From Caballeronia glebae (lineage in GTDB: Bacteria; Pseudomonadota; Gammaproteobacteria; Burkholderiales; Burkholderiaceae), in the NCBI RefSeq assembly GCF_001545035.1, contig NZ_FCOJ02000013.1:62001-126000 (forward strand): a DNA stretch of 64,000 nucleotides, given 5' to 3'. A program made the translations under genes and the position numbers. Below the pieces are notes generated by a model. That model had not been told where the DNA came from and did not search any database. It was given only the letters and a program-made list of their open reading frames with translations. Positions 1-15,488 of this stretch are shown one piece after another (position 1 is the stretch's first letter; each line of letters opens with the position of its first letter).

Positions 1-1171
1 CCGTGAAGAACGGGTTCGCAGCATCTTCAGCGATATTCACCACGTTGCCGAGTGCATCCTGCAACTGCTGGTAGTTCACCGCATCGCTGGCGGACGAGCC
101 GTTCGCGACGTTGTGAATGATCGTGCCGCCGGTTTGCGTCGTGGTGTTGTACGTGTCGCCGCCCAACGTAAGGCTGTTGTGCGTCGAGTCGTCGTACTGA
201 ACCGCATTCTTCGTCAGCGTGTTCACGCTGTTGGTGATGTTCGTGACCTCACCCTGCAGCGAATTCACCGCCGAGTTGGTCGCGTACAACTGCGAGCCGT
301 TCACAGCATCGGTCGAACCCGCCGAGACGCGTCCTGCCGCCACGTTCGTGATCGTGCGCTCAGCGCCCGGCGAACCGACGCTCACCGTACCGATCGGGGT
401 CGAGCCTGCATACCCGTAGTACTGTCCAGCAATCGAATCGCCAACGGTGCCGACAGCTTGGGTCGAAATCGAACCCGCGCCGAGAGCCACGTCGTTCTTG
501 TTGTTCGCAATGGCGCCCATACCGATTGCAACCGAGTCCTCACCCAACGCTTGCGAGTCCGCTCCCGTGCTGTTCGCATGGAAGTACTTCGTGCCCGAAC
601 CGTAGATGTTGTTGACCGAGTTGCTGATGTTCGTGACATTGCCCGCAACATTCGACAACTGCGAGTAGTTCACTGCGTCGCTATCGTTCGTGCCGTCAGC
701 GAGGTTCGTGATCTTCGTGCCGCCCGTGTGCGTCGTGCTGTTGTACGCCGGACCCGCCAGCGTCACGCTGTTGTAGTTCGACGTGTTGTCGTACTTCACA
801 GCGCCTTCACCCGACGCGTTGATCGCGTTCCCGAGCGCCTGATTCGTCGCGTACAGCTGCGAACCGTTGATCGCATCCGTCGAGTCGGCCGTGATCTGGC
901 CCGCTCCAACGTTCGTGATCGTGCGCTCTTGGCCCTTGCTACCGACCGACACCGTGCTCTGCGCGTTCGAACCCGCGAACGAGTAGTACTTGCCGTGGAG
1001 CGTCGCGCCCGGGGTGTTCACCACCGGCGCCGTCGTCGAGTTTGCACCCAGCGCTACGTCGTTCGTGAAGTTCGCAACCGCACCCGTACCGATTGCAACC
1101 GAGTCCGCACCCTTACCCACCGAGACCACGCCCGTCGCGTCCGAGCCTGCGTACGAGTAAGCCTTGCCGCC
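1..1171 (-). pseudogene. Trimeric autotransporter adhesin, body fragment (YadA-like head/neck repeats)
   Basis: The minus strand is open from 1171 to the window edge, about 390 codons, with neither a start nor a stop. It encodes repeating head and neck modules of a YadA-like trimeric autotransporter: short left-handed repeats of the type DSVAIGTGA and DVALGA, neck motifs such as STDAINGSQLYAT, and RTITNVGAG linkers. These modules form the surface-exposed fibre that mediates attachment. The membrane anchor should lie left of the window. At 1171 the frame (GGKAYSYAG) ends abruptly against a glycosyltransferase on the other strand, so the N-terminal part is missing here; it lies at 2851-3923 on the plus strand. 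The reading frame itself is clean. Called a fragment because of the inversion break, not because of decay. Confidence 0.85.
552..597 (-). repeat. 46-bp inverted repeat, left arm
   Basis: The reverse complement of this stretch is identical over 46 bases to 3725-3770. It encodes the adhesin head segment containing GTKYFHANSTGADSQ. The two copies are duplicated adhesin modules. They are inverted relative to each other only because the intervening DNA is inverted, and would be direct repeats within one gene in the restored order. Confidence 0.85.
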
Positions 1172-2342
1172 AAGCCGCCGCTTCGCGAAGCATTTCGAGA
1201 CGCCTTACCTCGCGCGCGAAGCGGTGTATCCGAACGACCGTTCTCCCGCGCGGCGACTGCGCGTAGGCTATGTCTCGCCCGATTTCCGCAACCACTGTCA
1301 GGCGCTGTTCATGCGCCCGCTGTTGAAGAGCCACGATCACGAAGCGGTCAAGGTGTATTGCTATTCGAGCGCTTCGACGCCGGATAACGTGACACAGGAG
1401 CTAAAGGGTTACGCCGACATCTGGCGCGACGTCCACAAGCTCGACGACGACGAGCTAGCCGCGCAAATCAGGGAAGACCGCATCGACATTCTGGTCGATC
1501 TGACCATGCACATGTCCACCGCGCGGCCGCTGCTTTTCGCGCGCCGTCCCGCGCCGGTGCAGGTGGCGTGGCTCGCGTATCCGGGCACGACGGGCCTGAG
1601 TTCCATTGGCTACCGCTTCACCGATTCATGGCTCGATCCGCTTGGCGACACCGCCGCGGACGCCCGCTACAGCGAAAAGTCGATTCGCCTCGCCGATACC
1701 TTCTGGTGCTACGAACCGCTGAACGGCGATATCGAACCCGGTCCGCTTCCCGCCGATTCGGCGGGCCACATCACCTTCGGCTGCCTGAACAACCCGTGCA
1801 AGCTGACCGATCACACGTTCGGCCTTTGGGCGGAGGTCTTGCGCGCGGTGCCGGATTCTCGGCTGAAACTCCTTCTCGGGCATGGCGGCGCGCGCGAGGC
1901 GGTGAGGGGCAAGTTCGCGGCGCTCGGCATTGATCCCGCACGGCTGGATTTTCTCGAATATCAGCAAAGAGAGCAGTACTTGCGCACGTATTGCGAGATC
2001 GATCTCGTGCTCGACACGTTCCCCTACAACGGCCACACCACGAGCCTGGACGCGCTCTGGATGGGCGTGCCGGTGGCCACAGCCATTGGCAAGACGCCGG
2101 CGGCCCGCGCCGGTTATTCGCTGCTTTCCAATCTCGGCCTCTCCGAACTGGCAGCGGCGAACGAACAGGGTTTTATCGAGACGGCGGTGGCGCTTTCGTT
2201 GAACCGGCCGCGTTTGCGCGAGCTTCGCGCGGAATTGCGTCAGCGCATGCGTGACTCCGCGCTCATGGATGGCGCTCGCTTTGCGCGCGCAATCGAACAC
2301 GGTTTTGTCACAGCGTGGAAAGACTGGCTAGCGACGGCCTGA
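1172..2342 (+). pseudogene. OGT/SPINDLY-type glycosyltransferase, C-terminal catalytic half (GT41-like)
   Basis: About 390 codons encode the catalytic half of a bacterial O-GlcNAc-transferase-like (GT41-type) enzyme, which moves a nucleotide-sugar glycosyl group onto protein. Visible family motifs are RLRVGYVSPDFRNH, the segment RPAPVQVAWLAYPGTTG, FGCLNNPCKLTD with its conserved lysine, and DTFPYNGHTTSLDALWMG near the C terminus. No plausible start codon or ribosome site precedes it; a TTG at 1164 opens the frame only by chance. The N-terminal TPR half sits on the opposite strand at 3924-5242, and the two join in frame if 1172-3923 is flipped. As the sequence stands the enzyme lacks its TPR domain and a promoter and is probably not made. 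Confidence 0.85.
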
Positions 2343-2850
2343 ATAAAAAACGTCTGTTTCGCACCACTCGGCGGTTTTTAATGAGCTTCAATTGCGATTG
2401 GGTCGGTGATTTAGGATAAATCCGAAATCACCGGTCGAATACCGCGTCAATCGAAAGAAAGAGTATTAAAAGGCCCTTTCTCGGCGTTTAAGAAGTTGTC
2501 ATCTGACAGATCTCATGCATGTGCGGGCAGGCATGGCGCGCATTTAGTCCTTTTCTCAAAAATTCTTAAAGCGAAGCCAGGCATTCGCTCGCACATCGTC
2601 GCAATTTTTAAGAGTTTTTCTATGTTATTGAGACGCCGGGAAAAGTATCGTGTGCGGTGAATTCTAAGACGCTTGTAATTTTTGAAAGCGTCGTGACTGA
2701 CAAGCAAGGTTATCTGTTAGGTCGGGCTTGAACGCCGATGTAAGTTCAGCGCCATTTCAGTTTTGCGTATCTAGGTTTTTTCCGATTGCGCGATCAACGC
2801 ACTCGTTGCTCGCCGTTGTTTTTCTATTTCGTGGTTACAGAGGTTCTTTA
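2343..2850. promoter_or_regulatory. AT-rich intergenic region, presumed adhesin promoter and leader
   Basis: About 508 bases without a convincing gene, clearly richer in A and T than its surroundings, between the glycosyltransferase end and the adhesin start. It must contain the adhesin promoter. A hairpin is possible from GGTGATTT (2405-2412) and AAATCACC (2425-2432). A good ribosome site (AGAGG, about 2839-2843) precedes the adhesin ATG at 2851. A 64-codon minus-strand frame here has no coding signature. Because the region lies inside the inverted block it moves with the adhesin start. Confidence 0.5.
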
Positions 2851-3923
2851 ATGAACAAGAATTATCGGGTTGTTTGGAACGAATCCACCGAGACGTGGGT
2901 TGCCGTCCCGGAAGTGGCGAAGGGACGTGGCAAGGGCAAGAGCAAAGCGGCGCGGAAGGCGGTCGCTGGGGGTGCGTTGGTCGCGGCTGGCCGGCATGTT
3001 CTCGTTTGCTCCGACCGCCATGGCGGGGTCGATTATCAACTGCGGCCCGACGAGCTACGCGAGTTTTTCGAGTGGACTCAATGGCTGGAATGGGCAGTGG
3101 TCCACAGGTGAGAACAATGGGGTTACAGGCTCGTGGCCTGCAACGTGTGTTGGGGGAAGCGCTAATAATACTGGCGTGACTCTGAGCGAGAACGGGAACT
3201 ATTTCAGTCCCGACTCCACGAATGCGGCCATTGTTGTCGGTGCAACCAATACGGGTACGCAAGGCGTTGTCTCGCTATATGGTCCGAAGGGCATCAACCT
3301 GATGAACCAGACGAGCCTGAACAGCAACAGGATCGTCAGCCTCGCAGCCGGCGTCAACGCCACAGATGCGGTCAACGTATCGCAGTTGGCGTGAACGCCG
3401 AGCGCACGATCACGAACGTGGGCGCGGGCCAGGTCACGTCCAACTCGACGGACGCGATCAACGGTTCGCAGCTGTTCGCGACGAATTCTGCGGTGAACAA
3501 CAACAGCAACTCGATCAACTCGATCAATGTGCTGGCGCAGAACTCGGTTCAGTACGACAACTCGACCCACAACAGCATCACGTTGGGCGGCACCACGTAC
3601 AACAGCTCGACGCACACGGGCGGCACGAAGATCATCAACGTGGCTGACGGCTCGAACGCCGGCGACGCGGTGAACTACTCGCAGTTGACCAACGTGAGCA
3701 ACTCGGTCAACAACATCTACACCACGGGCACGAAGTACTTCCATGCGAACAGCACGGGAGCGGACTCGCAGGCTACGCGACCGCAATCGGCGTGAACTCG
3801 AACGCCAACGCTGCGAACTCGACTGCAATCGGCAACTATGCGCAAGCCACGACGGCCAATTCGGTGGCACTGGGCGTGGCCTCGTCGACGGGCGCACTGA
3901 CGAACACCAAGACCGGGACGATT
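2851..3923 (+). pseudogene. Trimeric autotransporter adhesin, N-terminal fragment with frameshifts
   Basis: Begins at ATG 2851 with a typical extended signal peptide region (MNKNYRVVWNESTETWVAVP), then a basic stretch and a hydrophobic signal core ending near PTAMAG. Neck (GVNATDAVNVSQL) and head repeats follow. Three frame changes interrupt it. Near 2989 an extra G in GCTGGCC shifts the signal peptide. Near 3390 the frame stops right after NVSQLA while the next module restarts in another frame. Near 3768 the frame changes exactly at the end of the 46-bp repeat. The last frame runs to 3923, where the adhesin is cut by the inversion; beyond that it reads through antisense DNA to a stop at 3969-3971. 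The partner body lies at 1-1171. Either a pseudogene or a locally mis-assembled repeat. Confidence 0.8.
3725..3770 (+). repeat. 46-bp inverted repeat, right arm
   Basis: Identical over 46 bases to the reverse complement of 552-597. The third adhesin frame change occurs directly at its right end, as expected if sequence was lost or collapsed at a repeat boundary. Confidence 0.85.
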
Positions 3924-5242
3924 TCCTCGAACACGTCGCGGCCGTCAAAGGACACGAAGGTCAGCGCGTAGCAAAGGTTGGCGTGCGCCATCAGGCTGTC
4001 GGGGTCGAGCGCGATTGCTTTGCGGTACAGATTCAGCGCCTCGGAAAGGTCGCCCGACGCCTTGCCCACCAGAACGTTCGCCAGGCCGATATAGGAGTCG
4101 GCCGAGTTGGGCTTCAATGCGAGCGCGCGACGCGCGATGGCTTCGGCCTCGTCGAACCTGCGCACGTTGCGCAACAGATTGGTGAGATTGTGGGCGGCGA
4201 TCCAGTTGTCCGGCGCGAGTTCCAGGGCGGTGCGCAGGTGCGGCTCCGCCTCCGCGGGCCTGTTCGTGTCCTGCAGGAGGCTGCCGAGATTGGTGTGCGC
4301 AGCCGCAAAGCCAGGATTCAGCTCGACCGCGCGGCGCAACAGACCTTCAGCTTCGGTGAAGCTGCCCGCTTCGGCCAGCAGCGCGCCAAGCGCGTTCTGC
4401 GCGCCGGCTGCATCGGGCGTGAGTTTCACCGTGCGGCGATAGGCTTCGATGGCTTCTTCGCTGCGGCCGAGATGGTTCAGCGTCTTGCCCAGCGTGAAGC
4501 ACGCCGACGCGAAGTCCGGATTCACCTCCAAAGCCGCGCGCAAGACGGTTTGCGCCTCGTCGAAACGGCGCGAATCGAACAACAGTGTGCCGAGGTTGCA
4601 CAGCGCCTCGGCAAAGCGCGGACGAAGGGCGAGCGCACGGCGAAACGCGGTTTCGGCTTCGTCGCGCCGGTTCAGTTCGCCGAACGCGCTGCCCAGGCTG
4701 TTGGACGCTTCCGCCCACGACGGGTGCAGCGCGACCGCGCGTTCGAATGCGGCGAGCGCATCGGCATGACGCGCCTGCTGCGTCAGCATTCGGCCGAAGT
4801 GGAAATGCATTTCCGCGTCGTTCGGGTCGAGCGCCAGCGCCGCGCGAAACTCCGCTTCCGCGCCCGCGAGGTCGCCTCTTTCGGGCAGCAGGCGCGCGAG
4901 GCTCTTGCGGGCCAGCGCAAATTGCGGATCGAGCGCAATTGCGCGGCGCAGCGCGGCTTCGGCCTCGTCGAGCCGGTTTTGCCGGCGCAGCGCCAGCGAG
5001 AGGTCCGTTTCCGCCTCCGCGTTCGGCGTAACCGCAAGCGAAGCGCGGATGTGCGACTCGGCGCTCACGGGATCGCCATCGAGAAGCTGCACCACGCCAA
5101 GCAAGTGATTCGCGCCAGCGTGCGCGGCGGTTTTCGCGAGAATTCGACGGCAAATGCTCGCGGCCTGCACTCGATTGCCCGCGCGGAAATCCGCCATCGC
5201 GGCGGCAAAAAGGTCAGCGGGCTTTTCTTGCAGTTCTTGCAC
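3924..5242 (-). pseudogene. TPR half of an OGT/SPINDLY-type glycosyltransferase
   Basis: About 440 codons made almost entirely of 34-residue TPR repeats, roughly a dozen, with recurring patterns such as EAEAALRRAIALDPQFA. This is the superhelical substrate-binding arm found in front of OGT-type catalytic domains. The likely start is GTG at 5240-5242 (MQELQEKPADLF), preceded by AAGGA eight bases upstream; longer N-terminal extensions lack a ribosome site. The family portion ends at GRDVFEE (3924) and then runs through antisense adhesin sequence to a chance stop at 3836. The missing catalytic half is at 1172-2342. Rejoined, the protein has about 829 residues. Its position directly beside the adhesin suggests it could glycosylate that adhesin; this is inference. 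Confidence 0.85.
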
Positions 5243-5449
5243 GATGATGATCCTTGTTCGAGGGCTCGCCTGCGGAGCCCGATGGGTTTCGTTCAAACCC
5301 GACGGGTGTGCCAATAGTGAAAATCCGTTTCAAGCGATTCCGTCGAACAAATTGGATTCGAAATGCTCGCGTGCCCAATCGGATGGATCACGCGCGGGCT
5401 GGATGCGCGCGAATATTGGCCGGCCATTTAAAAGCCGCACTGAAATGTC

Positions 5450-13138: not shown

Positions 13139-14125
13139 TCAGGCGCGGCGCTTGTGGCGCGCCATGCTTACGGCGGCGTCGATGGCGGCGATCATGCTGC
13201 CCGGATCGGCGCGGCCCGTGCCGGCGAGATCGAGCGCGGTGCCGTGATCCACCGACGTGCGGATGATCGGCAAGCCGAGCGTCACGTTGATGCCCTCGCC
13301 AAAGGTCGCGTACTTCAGCACCGGCAAGCCCTGGTCGTGGAACATCGCGAGCACGCAATCGGCGTCTTTCAGATAGCGCGGCTGGAACAGGGTATCGGCG
13401 GGATACGGGCCGGGCGCGTCGATGCCGAGCGCGCGGGCGCGTTCGAGCGCTGGCGCGATGACGTCGATTTCCTCGCGGCCGAGATAACCGTTTTCGCCCG
13501 CGTGCGGGTTGAGTCCGGTCACGAGAATGCGCGGCGCGGGCAAGCCGAAATGCGCGCGTAGATCGTGATCGATGATCGTCAGCGTTTCAACGATTCCGTC
13601 GATACTGAGCGCGGCGGAGACGTCCTTGAGCGGCAGATGCGTGGTCGCAAGCGCCACGCGCAACGGACGCTCGCCCGAACCCGCCAGCATCATTACGACG
13701 CGCGGCGTGTGCGTGCGCTCGGCGAGATATTCGGTGTGGCCGGTGAAGGGCACGCCGGCATCGTTGATCGTGCTCTTTTGCAACGGCGCGGTGACGATGG
13801 CGTCGAAGCGGCCGGAGACCGCGCCGTCGATGGCGGCATCGAGCAGATCGAGCACATAGCGCCCGTTGGCCGCGTTCAGTTTGCCCGGCTCGGCGGGCGT
13901 AGCGAGCGCGTGATGCTCGATGTCCACCGCGTCGGGCCATGCGCCGCCCGCGCGTGAGCTCAGTAGATCGCGATCGCCGAGCACCGTGAAGTGCGCCGAT
14001 GGCCAGCGCTCGCGCGTCTGCCCGATTGTCTGTCTGAGCGCCGCCGCCGTCAGCTCCGGGCCGACGCCGGCCGGCTCGCCGGTCGTAATGGCGATGGCGA
14101 GCGGTCGGACGTCGGCGGCGCTCAT
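13139..14125 (-). CDS. pdxA: 4-hydroxythreonine-4-phosphate dehydrogenase PdxA
   Basis: 328 residues from ATG 14125, four bases after the surA stop. It oxidises 4-phosphohydroxy-threonine with NAD in de novo pyridoxal phosphate synthesis. The N-terminal [12 protein letters not shown], the phosphate and substrate motif GHTEYLA, and the metal-binding region [13 protein letters not shown] followed by [13 protein letters not shown] are all present. Length and motif order are normal. Confidence 0.95.
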
Positions 14126-14129
14126 GCGC

Positions 14130-15488
14130 TTACTCCTGCGGGGCAGCGATGCCCTTGTACTGCACGTAAGCGGTGTCGCGCAGTTCGCGCAGCCAGTCGG
14201 AATAGGCCTGCTCTGCCTTGCGCTGGCCGATCGCCTGCCGCGCGATGTCGAGCTGCTGCGACGCCGATCCTTCCGCGTCACGACGGGCGAGCACCTGAAT
14301 CAGGTGATAGCCGTACTCGCTTCGCACCGGATCGCTTACCTCGCCGTCCTGGAGGTTGTTCATCGCGCGCTCGAACTCGGGCACGGTCTCGCCCGGGCTG
14401 ATCCAGCCGAGATCGCCGCCTTGCGAGGCCGAACCGTCCTGCGAATACGTGCGCGCGAAGTTGGCGAAATCGCCGCCGTTCGCGACTTGCTGCTTGATTT
14501 CGAGAAGCCTCTGGCGCGCCGCCTGTTCCGACATGCCGTCCGACACGCGCAGCAGAATGTGGCGCACGTGCGTTTGCACGAGCTTGGGCGCATCGGCCGC
14601 GGTGCCCTGGCTTGCGCGGCGATCCACCAGCTTGATGATCTCGAAACCACCGCTGGTGCGCAGCAGCGACGGCACAACCTGGCCGGGACGCAGCGTCGAC
14701 ACCGCCGTTACGATGCCCGCCGGCAGCGAGGCGGGCGCGCGGAAACCGAGATCGCCGCCCTTGGCTGCGTCCGTGTCCTGCGAGTTCTGCTTCGCGAGCC
14801 TGGCGAAGTCATCGCCGCCTTGCGCCTGCTTGAGCACGGCCTCGGCCTGCGCCTGGACCTTCGCGACGTCGCTGTCCGGCGCGTCAGCGGGAACCTTGAA
14901 CATGATGTGCTGCAGATGCAGATCGCTCGTATTGCGTGCGCCCGGACCGCGCTGGCTGGCGATGTAGTTCGCCACTTCGCCGTCGGACACGGTGATCTTG
15001 CTATCCACTTCCTTTTCGCGCAGCTTCGAGAGCGTAAGCTCCGTGCGGGCGTCGCGCATGAAGGTGGACCAGGGCACGCCCTGCGCTTCGATGCGCGAGC
15101 GGTAGACGTCGAGCGTCATCTGGTTTTGCTGCGCGAGACGCGCGAGCGTGCGGTTCACGGTGGCGTCGTCGATGACGATGCCGTCGTCCTTCGCCTTCTG
15201 AAGCTGGATGCGCTCAAGCACCATCTGATCGAGCACTTGCCGCTGCATCTGGTCGCCGGGCGGCACCGGCGCGTTTTGCTGCTGGAGACGCTTGACGATG
15301 AGCGCGGTGCGTTCTTCCAGTTCGCGCCGCGTGATGACGCCATCGTTCACCACCGCGACGACGGAATCCACGACCTGCGCACGGCTATTCGACAACGCCT
15401 GCGCACCGGCCGGCGAACTCAGGATCAGTGCGCCGACGAGTACGCCCGCTGCAATTGCCGTCGATCGAAACATATTCATGTTTGCCAC
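14130..15488 (-). CDS. surA: Periplasmic chaperone and peptidyl-prolyl isomerase SurA
   Basis: About 452 residues. It escorts outer-membrane proteins, including the neighbouring LptD, across the periplasm. A signal peptide ([21 protein letters not shown]) is followed by the SurA N-domain and two parvulin domains: one around [11 protein letters not shown] to [12 protein letters not shown], and a second around [13 protein letters not shown] to [13 protein letters not shown]. The start is uncertain: GTG 15488 has GGAG five bases upstream, and ATG 15479 or 15473 would also give a good signal peptide. It follows lptD and precedes pdxA closely. Confidence 0.93.

What the first reader, a model, noticed from the sequence alone, without database searches (positions are those of the whole stretch)
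1172..3923. A single inversion breaks an adhesin gene and a glycosyltransferase gene, and reversing it repairs both in frame
Seen directly: TPR half on the minus strand ends at 3924 and its catalytic half lies on the plus strand from 1172; adhesin start and body are likewise on opposite strands. Flipping 1172-3923 gives an open TPR-glycosyltransferase of about 829 codons and joins adhesin GTI to GGKAYSYAG in frame. Two in-frame repairs from one operation are very unlikely by chance. A population switching this block would turn off both genes together, a coupled phase-variation idea. The edges share only 2 bp and no recombinase is near, so an assembly chimera or a one-off rearrangement is also plausible.
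Basis: partly seen in the sequence, partly recalled or inferred. Interest (0 to 1): 0.75.

Follow-up and report, generated by a model that had tools for sequence, protein, structure and literature searches.

The report
Local DNA shuffle breaking two genes
In the draft genome of a soil bacterium, a small stretch of DNA lies back to front and partly out of order compared with its relatives, which cuts a sugar-transferring enzyme gene and a surface-adhesin gene in two; it looks like a one-off accident or an assembly error, not a genetic switch.

Summary
The inversion is confirmed in the assembly, which matches Caballeronia (Burkholderia) glebae LMG 29325T in length and contig number. In the related C. 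peredens the TPR-glycosyltransferase is one 829-codon gene, with the adhesin start about 0.5 kb later. The window's halves map to its bases 9999 and 10001 on opposite strands. Of 102 fetched locus rows holding both halves (at least 49 distinct groups), none has them on opposite strands.

That one flip repairs both genes holds only for the glycosyltransferase. The adhesin inside the block changes frame three times (near 2990, 3388, 3772), so it stays broken either way. A 387-bp piece (3388-3774) also seems displaced: relatives carry D-E-C, the window has B-C-D, the inversion edge, then E-F. That makes five abnormal junctions, not two.

No listed inverted repeat sits at the edges, no Resolvase match lies on the contig, and no second orientation was seen. 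Best reading: a one-off, nearly lossless, recent local rearrangement. An assembly artefact is the serious rival, since 386-bp inserts cannot span the block. Coupled phase variation is not supported.

The parts
1172..3923 (.). inverted block (left edge 1172/1173, right edge 3923/3924; AA/TT shared at the crossover)
   Evidence: blastn to L009: 1173 maps to 10001 (+), 3924 maps to 9999 (-); edge comparison 20 of 80
3924..5314 (-). N half of the glycosyltransferase: TPR repeats, open, cut at 3924
   Evidence: ORF; TPR_2 E 6.4e-55; 3924-5245 matches L009 9999-8678
1173..2342 (+). C half of the glycosyltransferase: GT41 / SPINDLY-like catalytic part, open to its stop
   Evidence: Glyco_transf_41 E 2.8e-56; best solved chains 5djs and SPINDLY 7y4i; 1173-2329 matches L009 10001-11157
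2343..2850 (+). spacer between the GT stop and the adhesin start
   Evidence: in relatives 502-711 bases from the end of the GT match to the ESPR match
2851..2991 (+). adhesin piece A: extended signal peptide (ESPR); a frame change follows near 2990
   Evidence: PF13018 E 1.4e-16; frames
2987..3388 (+). adhesin piece B: N-terminal passenger ending in a stalk neck
   Evidence: PF05662 E 1.2e-6; frame 1; homologues
3388..3774 (+). adhesin piece C (387 bp, neck/stalk), apparently displaced: relatives carry it after E
   Evidence: order in relatives; SQL followed by a neck in 0 of 70; spacing test
3771..3923 (+). adhesin piece D (YadA head repeats), ending at the right inversion edge
   Evidence: PF05658 E 7.9e-11; D followed by E in 6 of 6 copies with an E match
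1115..1171 (-). adhesin piece E (57 bp), from the left inversion edge; joined to F instead of to a neck
1..1114 (-). adhesin piece F: body, open, running on outside the window (L085 down to 18429) to a YadA anchor
   Evidence: YadA_stalk, YadA_head and YadA_anchor in separate pieces

Best explanation
A one-off, nearly lossless local rearrangement in the lineage or culture of C. glebae LMG 29325. About 2.8 kb covering the GT C half, the spacer and the adhesin N part was turned round. A 387-bp adhesin piece was cut out next to one edge and put back inside the turned block. There are five new junctions; where it can be read, about 1-3 bp are shared. This splits the GT over two strands and leaves the adhesin out of frame. 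Shown: the split, the altered order and strand against relatives, the frame changes. Inferred: that it is present in the cell's DNA, that C moved as a unit, and that it arose by joining of broken ends (the genome carries Ku) rather than by a dedicated recombinase. It is a recent loss-of-function change, not a switch.
For: C. peredens has the syntenic GT-adhesin pair with an open GT; the break is exact to about a base. 0 of 102 locus rows with both GT halves have them on opposite strands; 100 are directly colinear (at least 49 distinct groups). Order D-E-C in L009 (twice), L010 (twice), L091, L092. Adjacencies of the window that relatives lack: neck soon after SQL, 0 of 70; E without a neck, 0 of 9 rows (6 by pattern, 3 by eye; L123 and L149 overlap, so perhaps 8 places). 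Spacing: 5 residues between VSVG and the next neck in 24 of 29 matches, 7 between FHANST..DS and VAIG in 10 of 10; moving C as one unit gives 5 and 7. Both GT halves lack stops, and window-side changes are not in significant excess in 6 of 6 comparisons. Three Ku places. SPAdes used k up to 77; joins sharing 2-3 bp should therefore have been in reads (inference). GT-linked adhesins stop early in 3 of 5 relatives; the other 2 are open to the contig end, so loss of this adhesin is ordinary.
Against: No reads were available; the assembly is a 194-contig short-read draft and the adhesin is repetitive. Five tidy junctions with each piece used once would be unusual for end joining, and is also what an assembler would produce that uses each fragment once. 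Undecayed GT halves fit an artefact equally well. Against displacement of C: alignments of C with its flanks run on about 40-60 bases into D in own F, L009 and L010, so a head repeat after C is not foreign. I set the ends of C with the same motifs that the spacing test uses. The GT N half has dN/dS of about 0.27, above two neighbour genes (about 0.18 and 0.11), and more window-side than peredens-side changes in 3 of 3 comparisons, none significant (ratios are mine).
Confidence: 0.54

Rival explanations
1. Assembly artefact: the block and adhesin piece C were misplaced when short reads of a repetitive adhesin were assembled and polished; the real chromosome has the relatives' order.
For: Nextera 151-bp paired reads, average insert 386 bp, SPAdes then Pilon with default parameters, so no pair spans 2.75 kb. 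Each piece is used once. The C. peredens assembly of the same study has a contig end inside the same adhesin, which shows that the repeat is hard to assemble. GT halves undecayed. Four of 57 other ORFs on this contig match C. peredens in two frames, so further frame differences exist in one of the two assemblies.
Against: The GT break lies in sequence with no close copy in the genome (best other match 71%). The edges share 2 bp, far below any k-mer used. Five true joins would have to be missing and five false ones present. All aligned blocks of 300 bp or more over about 78 kb of the same contig (67981-145657) run in one orientation against C. peredens; smaller inversions were not looked for.
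Confidence: 0.38
2. Coupled phase variation: a reversible inversion turns GT and adhesin off together.
For: The inversion is base-exact in the GT, both genes are cut by it, and the GT halves are undecayed.
Against: Adhesin frame changes persist in either orientation. No inverted repeat at the edges among the 25 of 34 pairs shown. 0 of 8 Resolvase matches on the contig; its single Phage_integrase match, of 29 in the genome, is about 40 kb away. 0 of 102 locus rows with opposite-strand halves and no alternative contig among 8 matches.
Confidence: 0.03
3. Plain inversion plus unrelated small indels: the adhesin of this species naturally has the order C-D-E-F, and the three frame changes are ordinary short deletions in a decaying gene.
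For: The frame change between A and B looks like a small deletion (by eye). Alignments of C run on into D in own F, L009 and L010. Relatives' adhesins also carry stops or frame changes.
Against: It needs several separate events and leaves two adjacencies without precedent in the relatives examined (0 of 70 and 0 of 9 rows). It does not explain why E, C and F fit together with the usual 5 and 7 residues.
Confidence: 0.1

Closest known systems
GT-YadA-like adhesin pair of C. peredens LMG 29314 (L009)
   Same: same neighbours (1153-aa SMC-like ORF, regulator ORF, 136-aa ORF; first two named by eye), GT of 829 codons, adhesin start about 0.5 kb after the GT
   Different: colinear, GT open; adhesin runs off the contig end
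Invertible segments and shufflons (hin/gin/Rci type; recalled)
   Same: segment inverted and pieces reshuffled with almost no loss
   Different: no shared recombination sites seen, no recombinase beside it, frames not kept, no second state seen
Gene-disrupting inversion with microhomology (end-joining type; recalled)
   Same: 2-bp sharing at the inversion edges, no repeats at the edges, genome carries Ku
   Different: five junctions in 2.8 kb with almost nothing lost

Membership tests
Invertible-DNA phase-variation system | inverted repeats at the two edges | tested here: not met
   34 inverted pairs found, 25 longest shown, none with arms at 1172 and 3923; pairs of 71-75% lie near, e.g. 1089-1139 / 3782-3832; 20 of 80 positions agree
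Invertible-DNA phase-variation system | site-specific recombinase nearby | tested here: not met
   0 of 8 PF00239 matches on contig C144; one of 29 PF00589 matches is on it, at C144:22500-23018, about 40 kb away; other recombinase families not searched
Invertible-DNA phase-variation system | one orientation gives working genes | tested here: not met
   reading frame kept for the GT; not for the adhesin, which has three frame changes inside the block
Invertible-DNA phase-variation system | both orientations present in a population | not testable with these tools
   no raw reads; no alternative contig among 8 matches in the assembly
GT41 (OGT/SPINDLY-like) glycosyltransferase | TPR repeats plus GT41 catalytic domain | tested here: met
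   TPR_2 6.4e-55 in the N half, Glyco_transf_41 2.8e-56 in the C half; PDB matches to SPINDLY and OGT; activity untested
Trimeric autotransporter adhesin | ESPR, head/stalk repeats, YadA anchor | tested here: met
   PF13018, PF05658, PF05662 and PF03895, found in separate pieces
Gene-disrupting rearrangement by end joining | no or short homology at junctions in a Ku-bearing genome | tested here: inconclusive
   2 bp at the inversion edges, three Ku places; whether the DNA is real is untested

The most novel reading that the evidence does not exclude
A bacterial gene pair was broken into at least four fragments within 2.8 kb and rejoined in new order and orientation with almost nothing lost. 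This would be either a miniature shatter-and-rejoin event by Ku-dependent end joining, or repeated inversions at reused break points by an unknown shufflon-like activity that needs hardly any site sequence. Three nested inversions with one reused break point suffice (worked out by hand, in no call).
Probability: 0.12. Interest if true: 0.7.

Novelty: new member of a known kind. Interest (0 to 1): 0.3.

Why it matters
Mostly as a caution. A neat case for a coupled switch dissolves once the adhesin is read piece by piece against relatives, and this type-strain assembly should not be used to call the GT or the adhesin lost without checking reads. If the junctions prove real, it is a compact, readable example of a multi-break local rearrangement in a bacterium that carries Ku, with both halves of the glycosyltransferase still undecayed. 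A second strain of the species exists (LMG 22938), so the question can be answered cheaply.

Tried and rejected
Repeat-mediated inversion: rejected, no listed inverted repeat at the edges. The inverted adhesin repeats that exist now (about 549-928 against 3400-3773) do not reach the edges, and by the relatives' order they would have been direct repeats before the inversion (inference). Simple small deletions in the adhesin: kept as a rival; the spacing test speaks against it, the alignments partly for it. A close relative among plasmids: none (68 records match, 0 with one place covering 80% of the query). Finding what normally follows piece B (22 of 398 genomes match) gave mostly distant homologues and did not settle its natural neighbour. 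Paper listings seen only as listings: (none); in 38, 41 and 42 (GT-adhesin pair, inversion of such genes) no listed title concerns this locus, but 42 showed 8 of 28 papers and 39 showed 10 of 31. PMC4896955 was read as passages. A search for papers on bacterial shattering failed and was not repeated.

Controls and dropped rows. In the 100-kb comparison 48 of 57 C. peredens ORFs with a match of 55% identity or more are covered at least 85% in one frame; 9 are not: the adhesin, four that match in two frames (o5, o20, o42, o49) and four with shorter matches; stop positions of six of them were listed and not followed further. Dropped there: ORFs under 150 aa and matches under 55%. The GT is not among the 9; probably its top hit was the upstream paralogue below 55% (not checked). 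In one search, 106 locus rows were examined, 4 without both halves (L011, L034, L067, L103). Many rows are one place fetched two or three times or close relatives: by shared 100-mers there are 52 groups, 49 with both halves, a lower limit for distinct places. The two rows not directly colinear (L076, L093, one place) have both halves on one strand, 67 bases off the expected distance. Only 8 of the 102 rows (five places) have an ESPR start within 3 kb downstream; some loci are too short to show one. In one search the 29 VSVG matches include one chance hit outside adhesins (L018) and four of length 10 (L143, L144).

Full report
Identity and data. The window is part of contig C144 of a 7,842,312-bp, 194-contig genome. 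Those two numbers are given for Burkholderia (now Caballeronia) glebae LMG 29325T, a Belgian soil isolate, in PMC4896955 (passages read). That study used Nextera libraries, 151-bp paired reads with an average insert of 386 bp, SPAdes with k up to 77, and Pilon with default parameters. C. peredens LMG 29314 was sequenced in the same study. No read pair could span the 2.75-kb block, so its orientation rests only on the local joins.

The inversion. In C. peredens (L009) a single 829-codon ORF encodes the TPR-GT41 protein, and an ESPR-type adhesin starts about 0.5 kb later on the same strand. blastn places window 3924-5245 (minus) on L009 9999-8678 and window 1173-2329 (plus) on L009 10001-11157, so the break is exact to about a base. 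Of 106 fetched locus rows, 102 hold both GT halves. In 100 of these the halves are directly colinear; the other two are one place fetched twice, with both halves on one strand; none are on opposite strands. By shared 100-mers the rows form 52 groups, 49 with both halves.

The adhesin is not repaired by the flip. Read in three frames, the adhesin in the block is four pieces: A (2851-2991, ESPR), B (2987-3388), C (3388-3774) and D (3771-3923), in frames 0, 1, 0 and 2. Outside the block, E (1171-1115) and F (1114 onward, continuing in L085 to a YadA anchor) are open and in one frame. In relatives D is followed by E and E by C: twice in L009, twice in L010, once each in L091 and L092; in L089 (same place as L082) D is followed by C with no E match. 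The window has C before D, and E joined straight to F. In relatives the motif SQL is followed by a neck within 18 residues in 0 of 70 cases, while E-type motifs are followed by a neck in 9 of 9 rows (6 by the pattern, 3 by eye; two of the rows come from overlapping loci). The spacing from VSVG to the neck is 5 residues in 24 of 29 matches, and from FHANST..DS to VAIG 7 in 10 of 10. The window's own body shows 5 in 2 of 2 (one more in L085) and 7 in 1 of 1. The pieces E, C and F supply 5 and 7 if C belongs between E and F. I chose the ends of C with the same motifs, so this shows consistency rather than independent proof. On the other side, alignments of C with its flanks run on about 40-60 bases into D in own F, L009 and L010, because head repeats resemble each other. 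I read the whole as piece C having been moved, which makes five abnormal junctions.

Why not a switch. The edges share only AA/TT, with 20 of 80 positions alike in the inverted comparison. None of the 25 inverted pairs shown (of 34) has arms at the two edges, though weak pairs from adhesin repeats lie near. None of the 8 Resolvase matches lies on this contig, and the only Phage_integrase match on it is about 40 kb away (XerC/D-like by recall). No alternative contig is among the 8 matches in the assembly. Either orientation leaves the adhesin out of frame. Phase variation of both genes by this block is therefore unlikely.

Real or artefact. For a real event: the GT break lies in sequence whose best other match in the genome is 71%, the shared 2 bp is far below any k-mer length, five false joins would be needed, and all aligned blocks of 300 bp or more over about 78 kb of the same contig run in one orientation against C. 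peredens. The genome has three Ku places, so end joining is available. Of five relatives' GT-linked adhesins, three stop early (L010, L082, L164: first stops at residues 425, 80 and 185) and two are open to the contig end (L009, L092); loss of this adhesin is thus common. For an artefact: a short-read draft, a repetitive gene, each piece used once, and GT halves without decay. dN/dS against C. peredens is about 0.27 for the N half and 0.15 for the C half, against about 0.18 and 0.11 for two neighbour genes (ratios mine). Window-side amino-acid changes exceed peredens-side ones in 3 of 3 comparisons for the N half and in none of 3 for the C half; none of the 6 is significant. I put a real one-off event at 0.54 and an artefact at 0.38.

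Function. The glycosyltransferase is a TPR-GT41 protein whose catalytic half matches SPINDLY/OGT-type solved enzymes. Its position directly before an ESPR-type adhesin in 8 of 102 locus rows (five places) suggests that it glycosylates that adhesin (inference). A 748-aa open TPR-GT paralogue ends 4.3 kb before the window (L085 12446-14692), so the loss may be buffered.

Noticed in passing
L085:12446-14692 (+), ending 4.3 kb before the window start: An open 748-aa TPR-glycosyltransferase paralogue (71% nt to part of the C half) near the same adhesin; it could cover for the broken copy.
   Followed up: partly
L164 (G016) about 13800-14634 (-): In a 5-contig genome the GT-linked adhesin has a frame change and then, by eye, runs into what looks like the end of an OmpA-family gene, as if the adhesin body and anchor had been deleted; the GT is open (861 aa).
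   Followed up: partly
L010, L082, L164: Three of five GT-linked adhesins in relatives stop early (residues 425, 80, 185; the other two are open to the contig end): repeated loss, or repeated sequencing or assembly trouble in this adhesin.
   Followed up: partly
window 1180-1191: A perfect 12-bp palindrome (GCTTCGCGAAGC) lies 8 bases inside the left inversion edge and is not kept in C. peredens; a hairpin there might favour breakage.
   Followed up: no
L085:17646-18359 (-): An OmpA-family protein that, by eye, starts like a lipoprotein follows the adhesin; GT, adhesin and this gene may form one unit.
   Followed up: no
G000 C102:96678, C81:11419, C159:18936: Three Ku-family places in one genome.
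   Followed up: no
C144 74003-75924, 97494-98830, 125040-126256, 134295-136027: Four other ORFs of C. peredens match this contig in two frames: frame differences or gene splits in one of the two short-read assemblies.
   Followed up: partly
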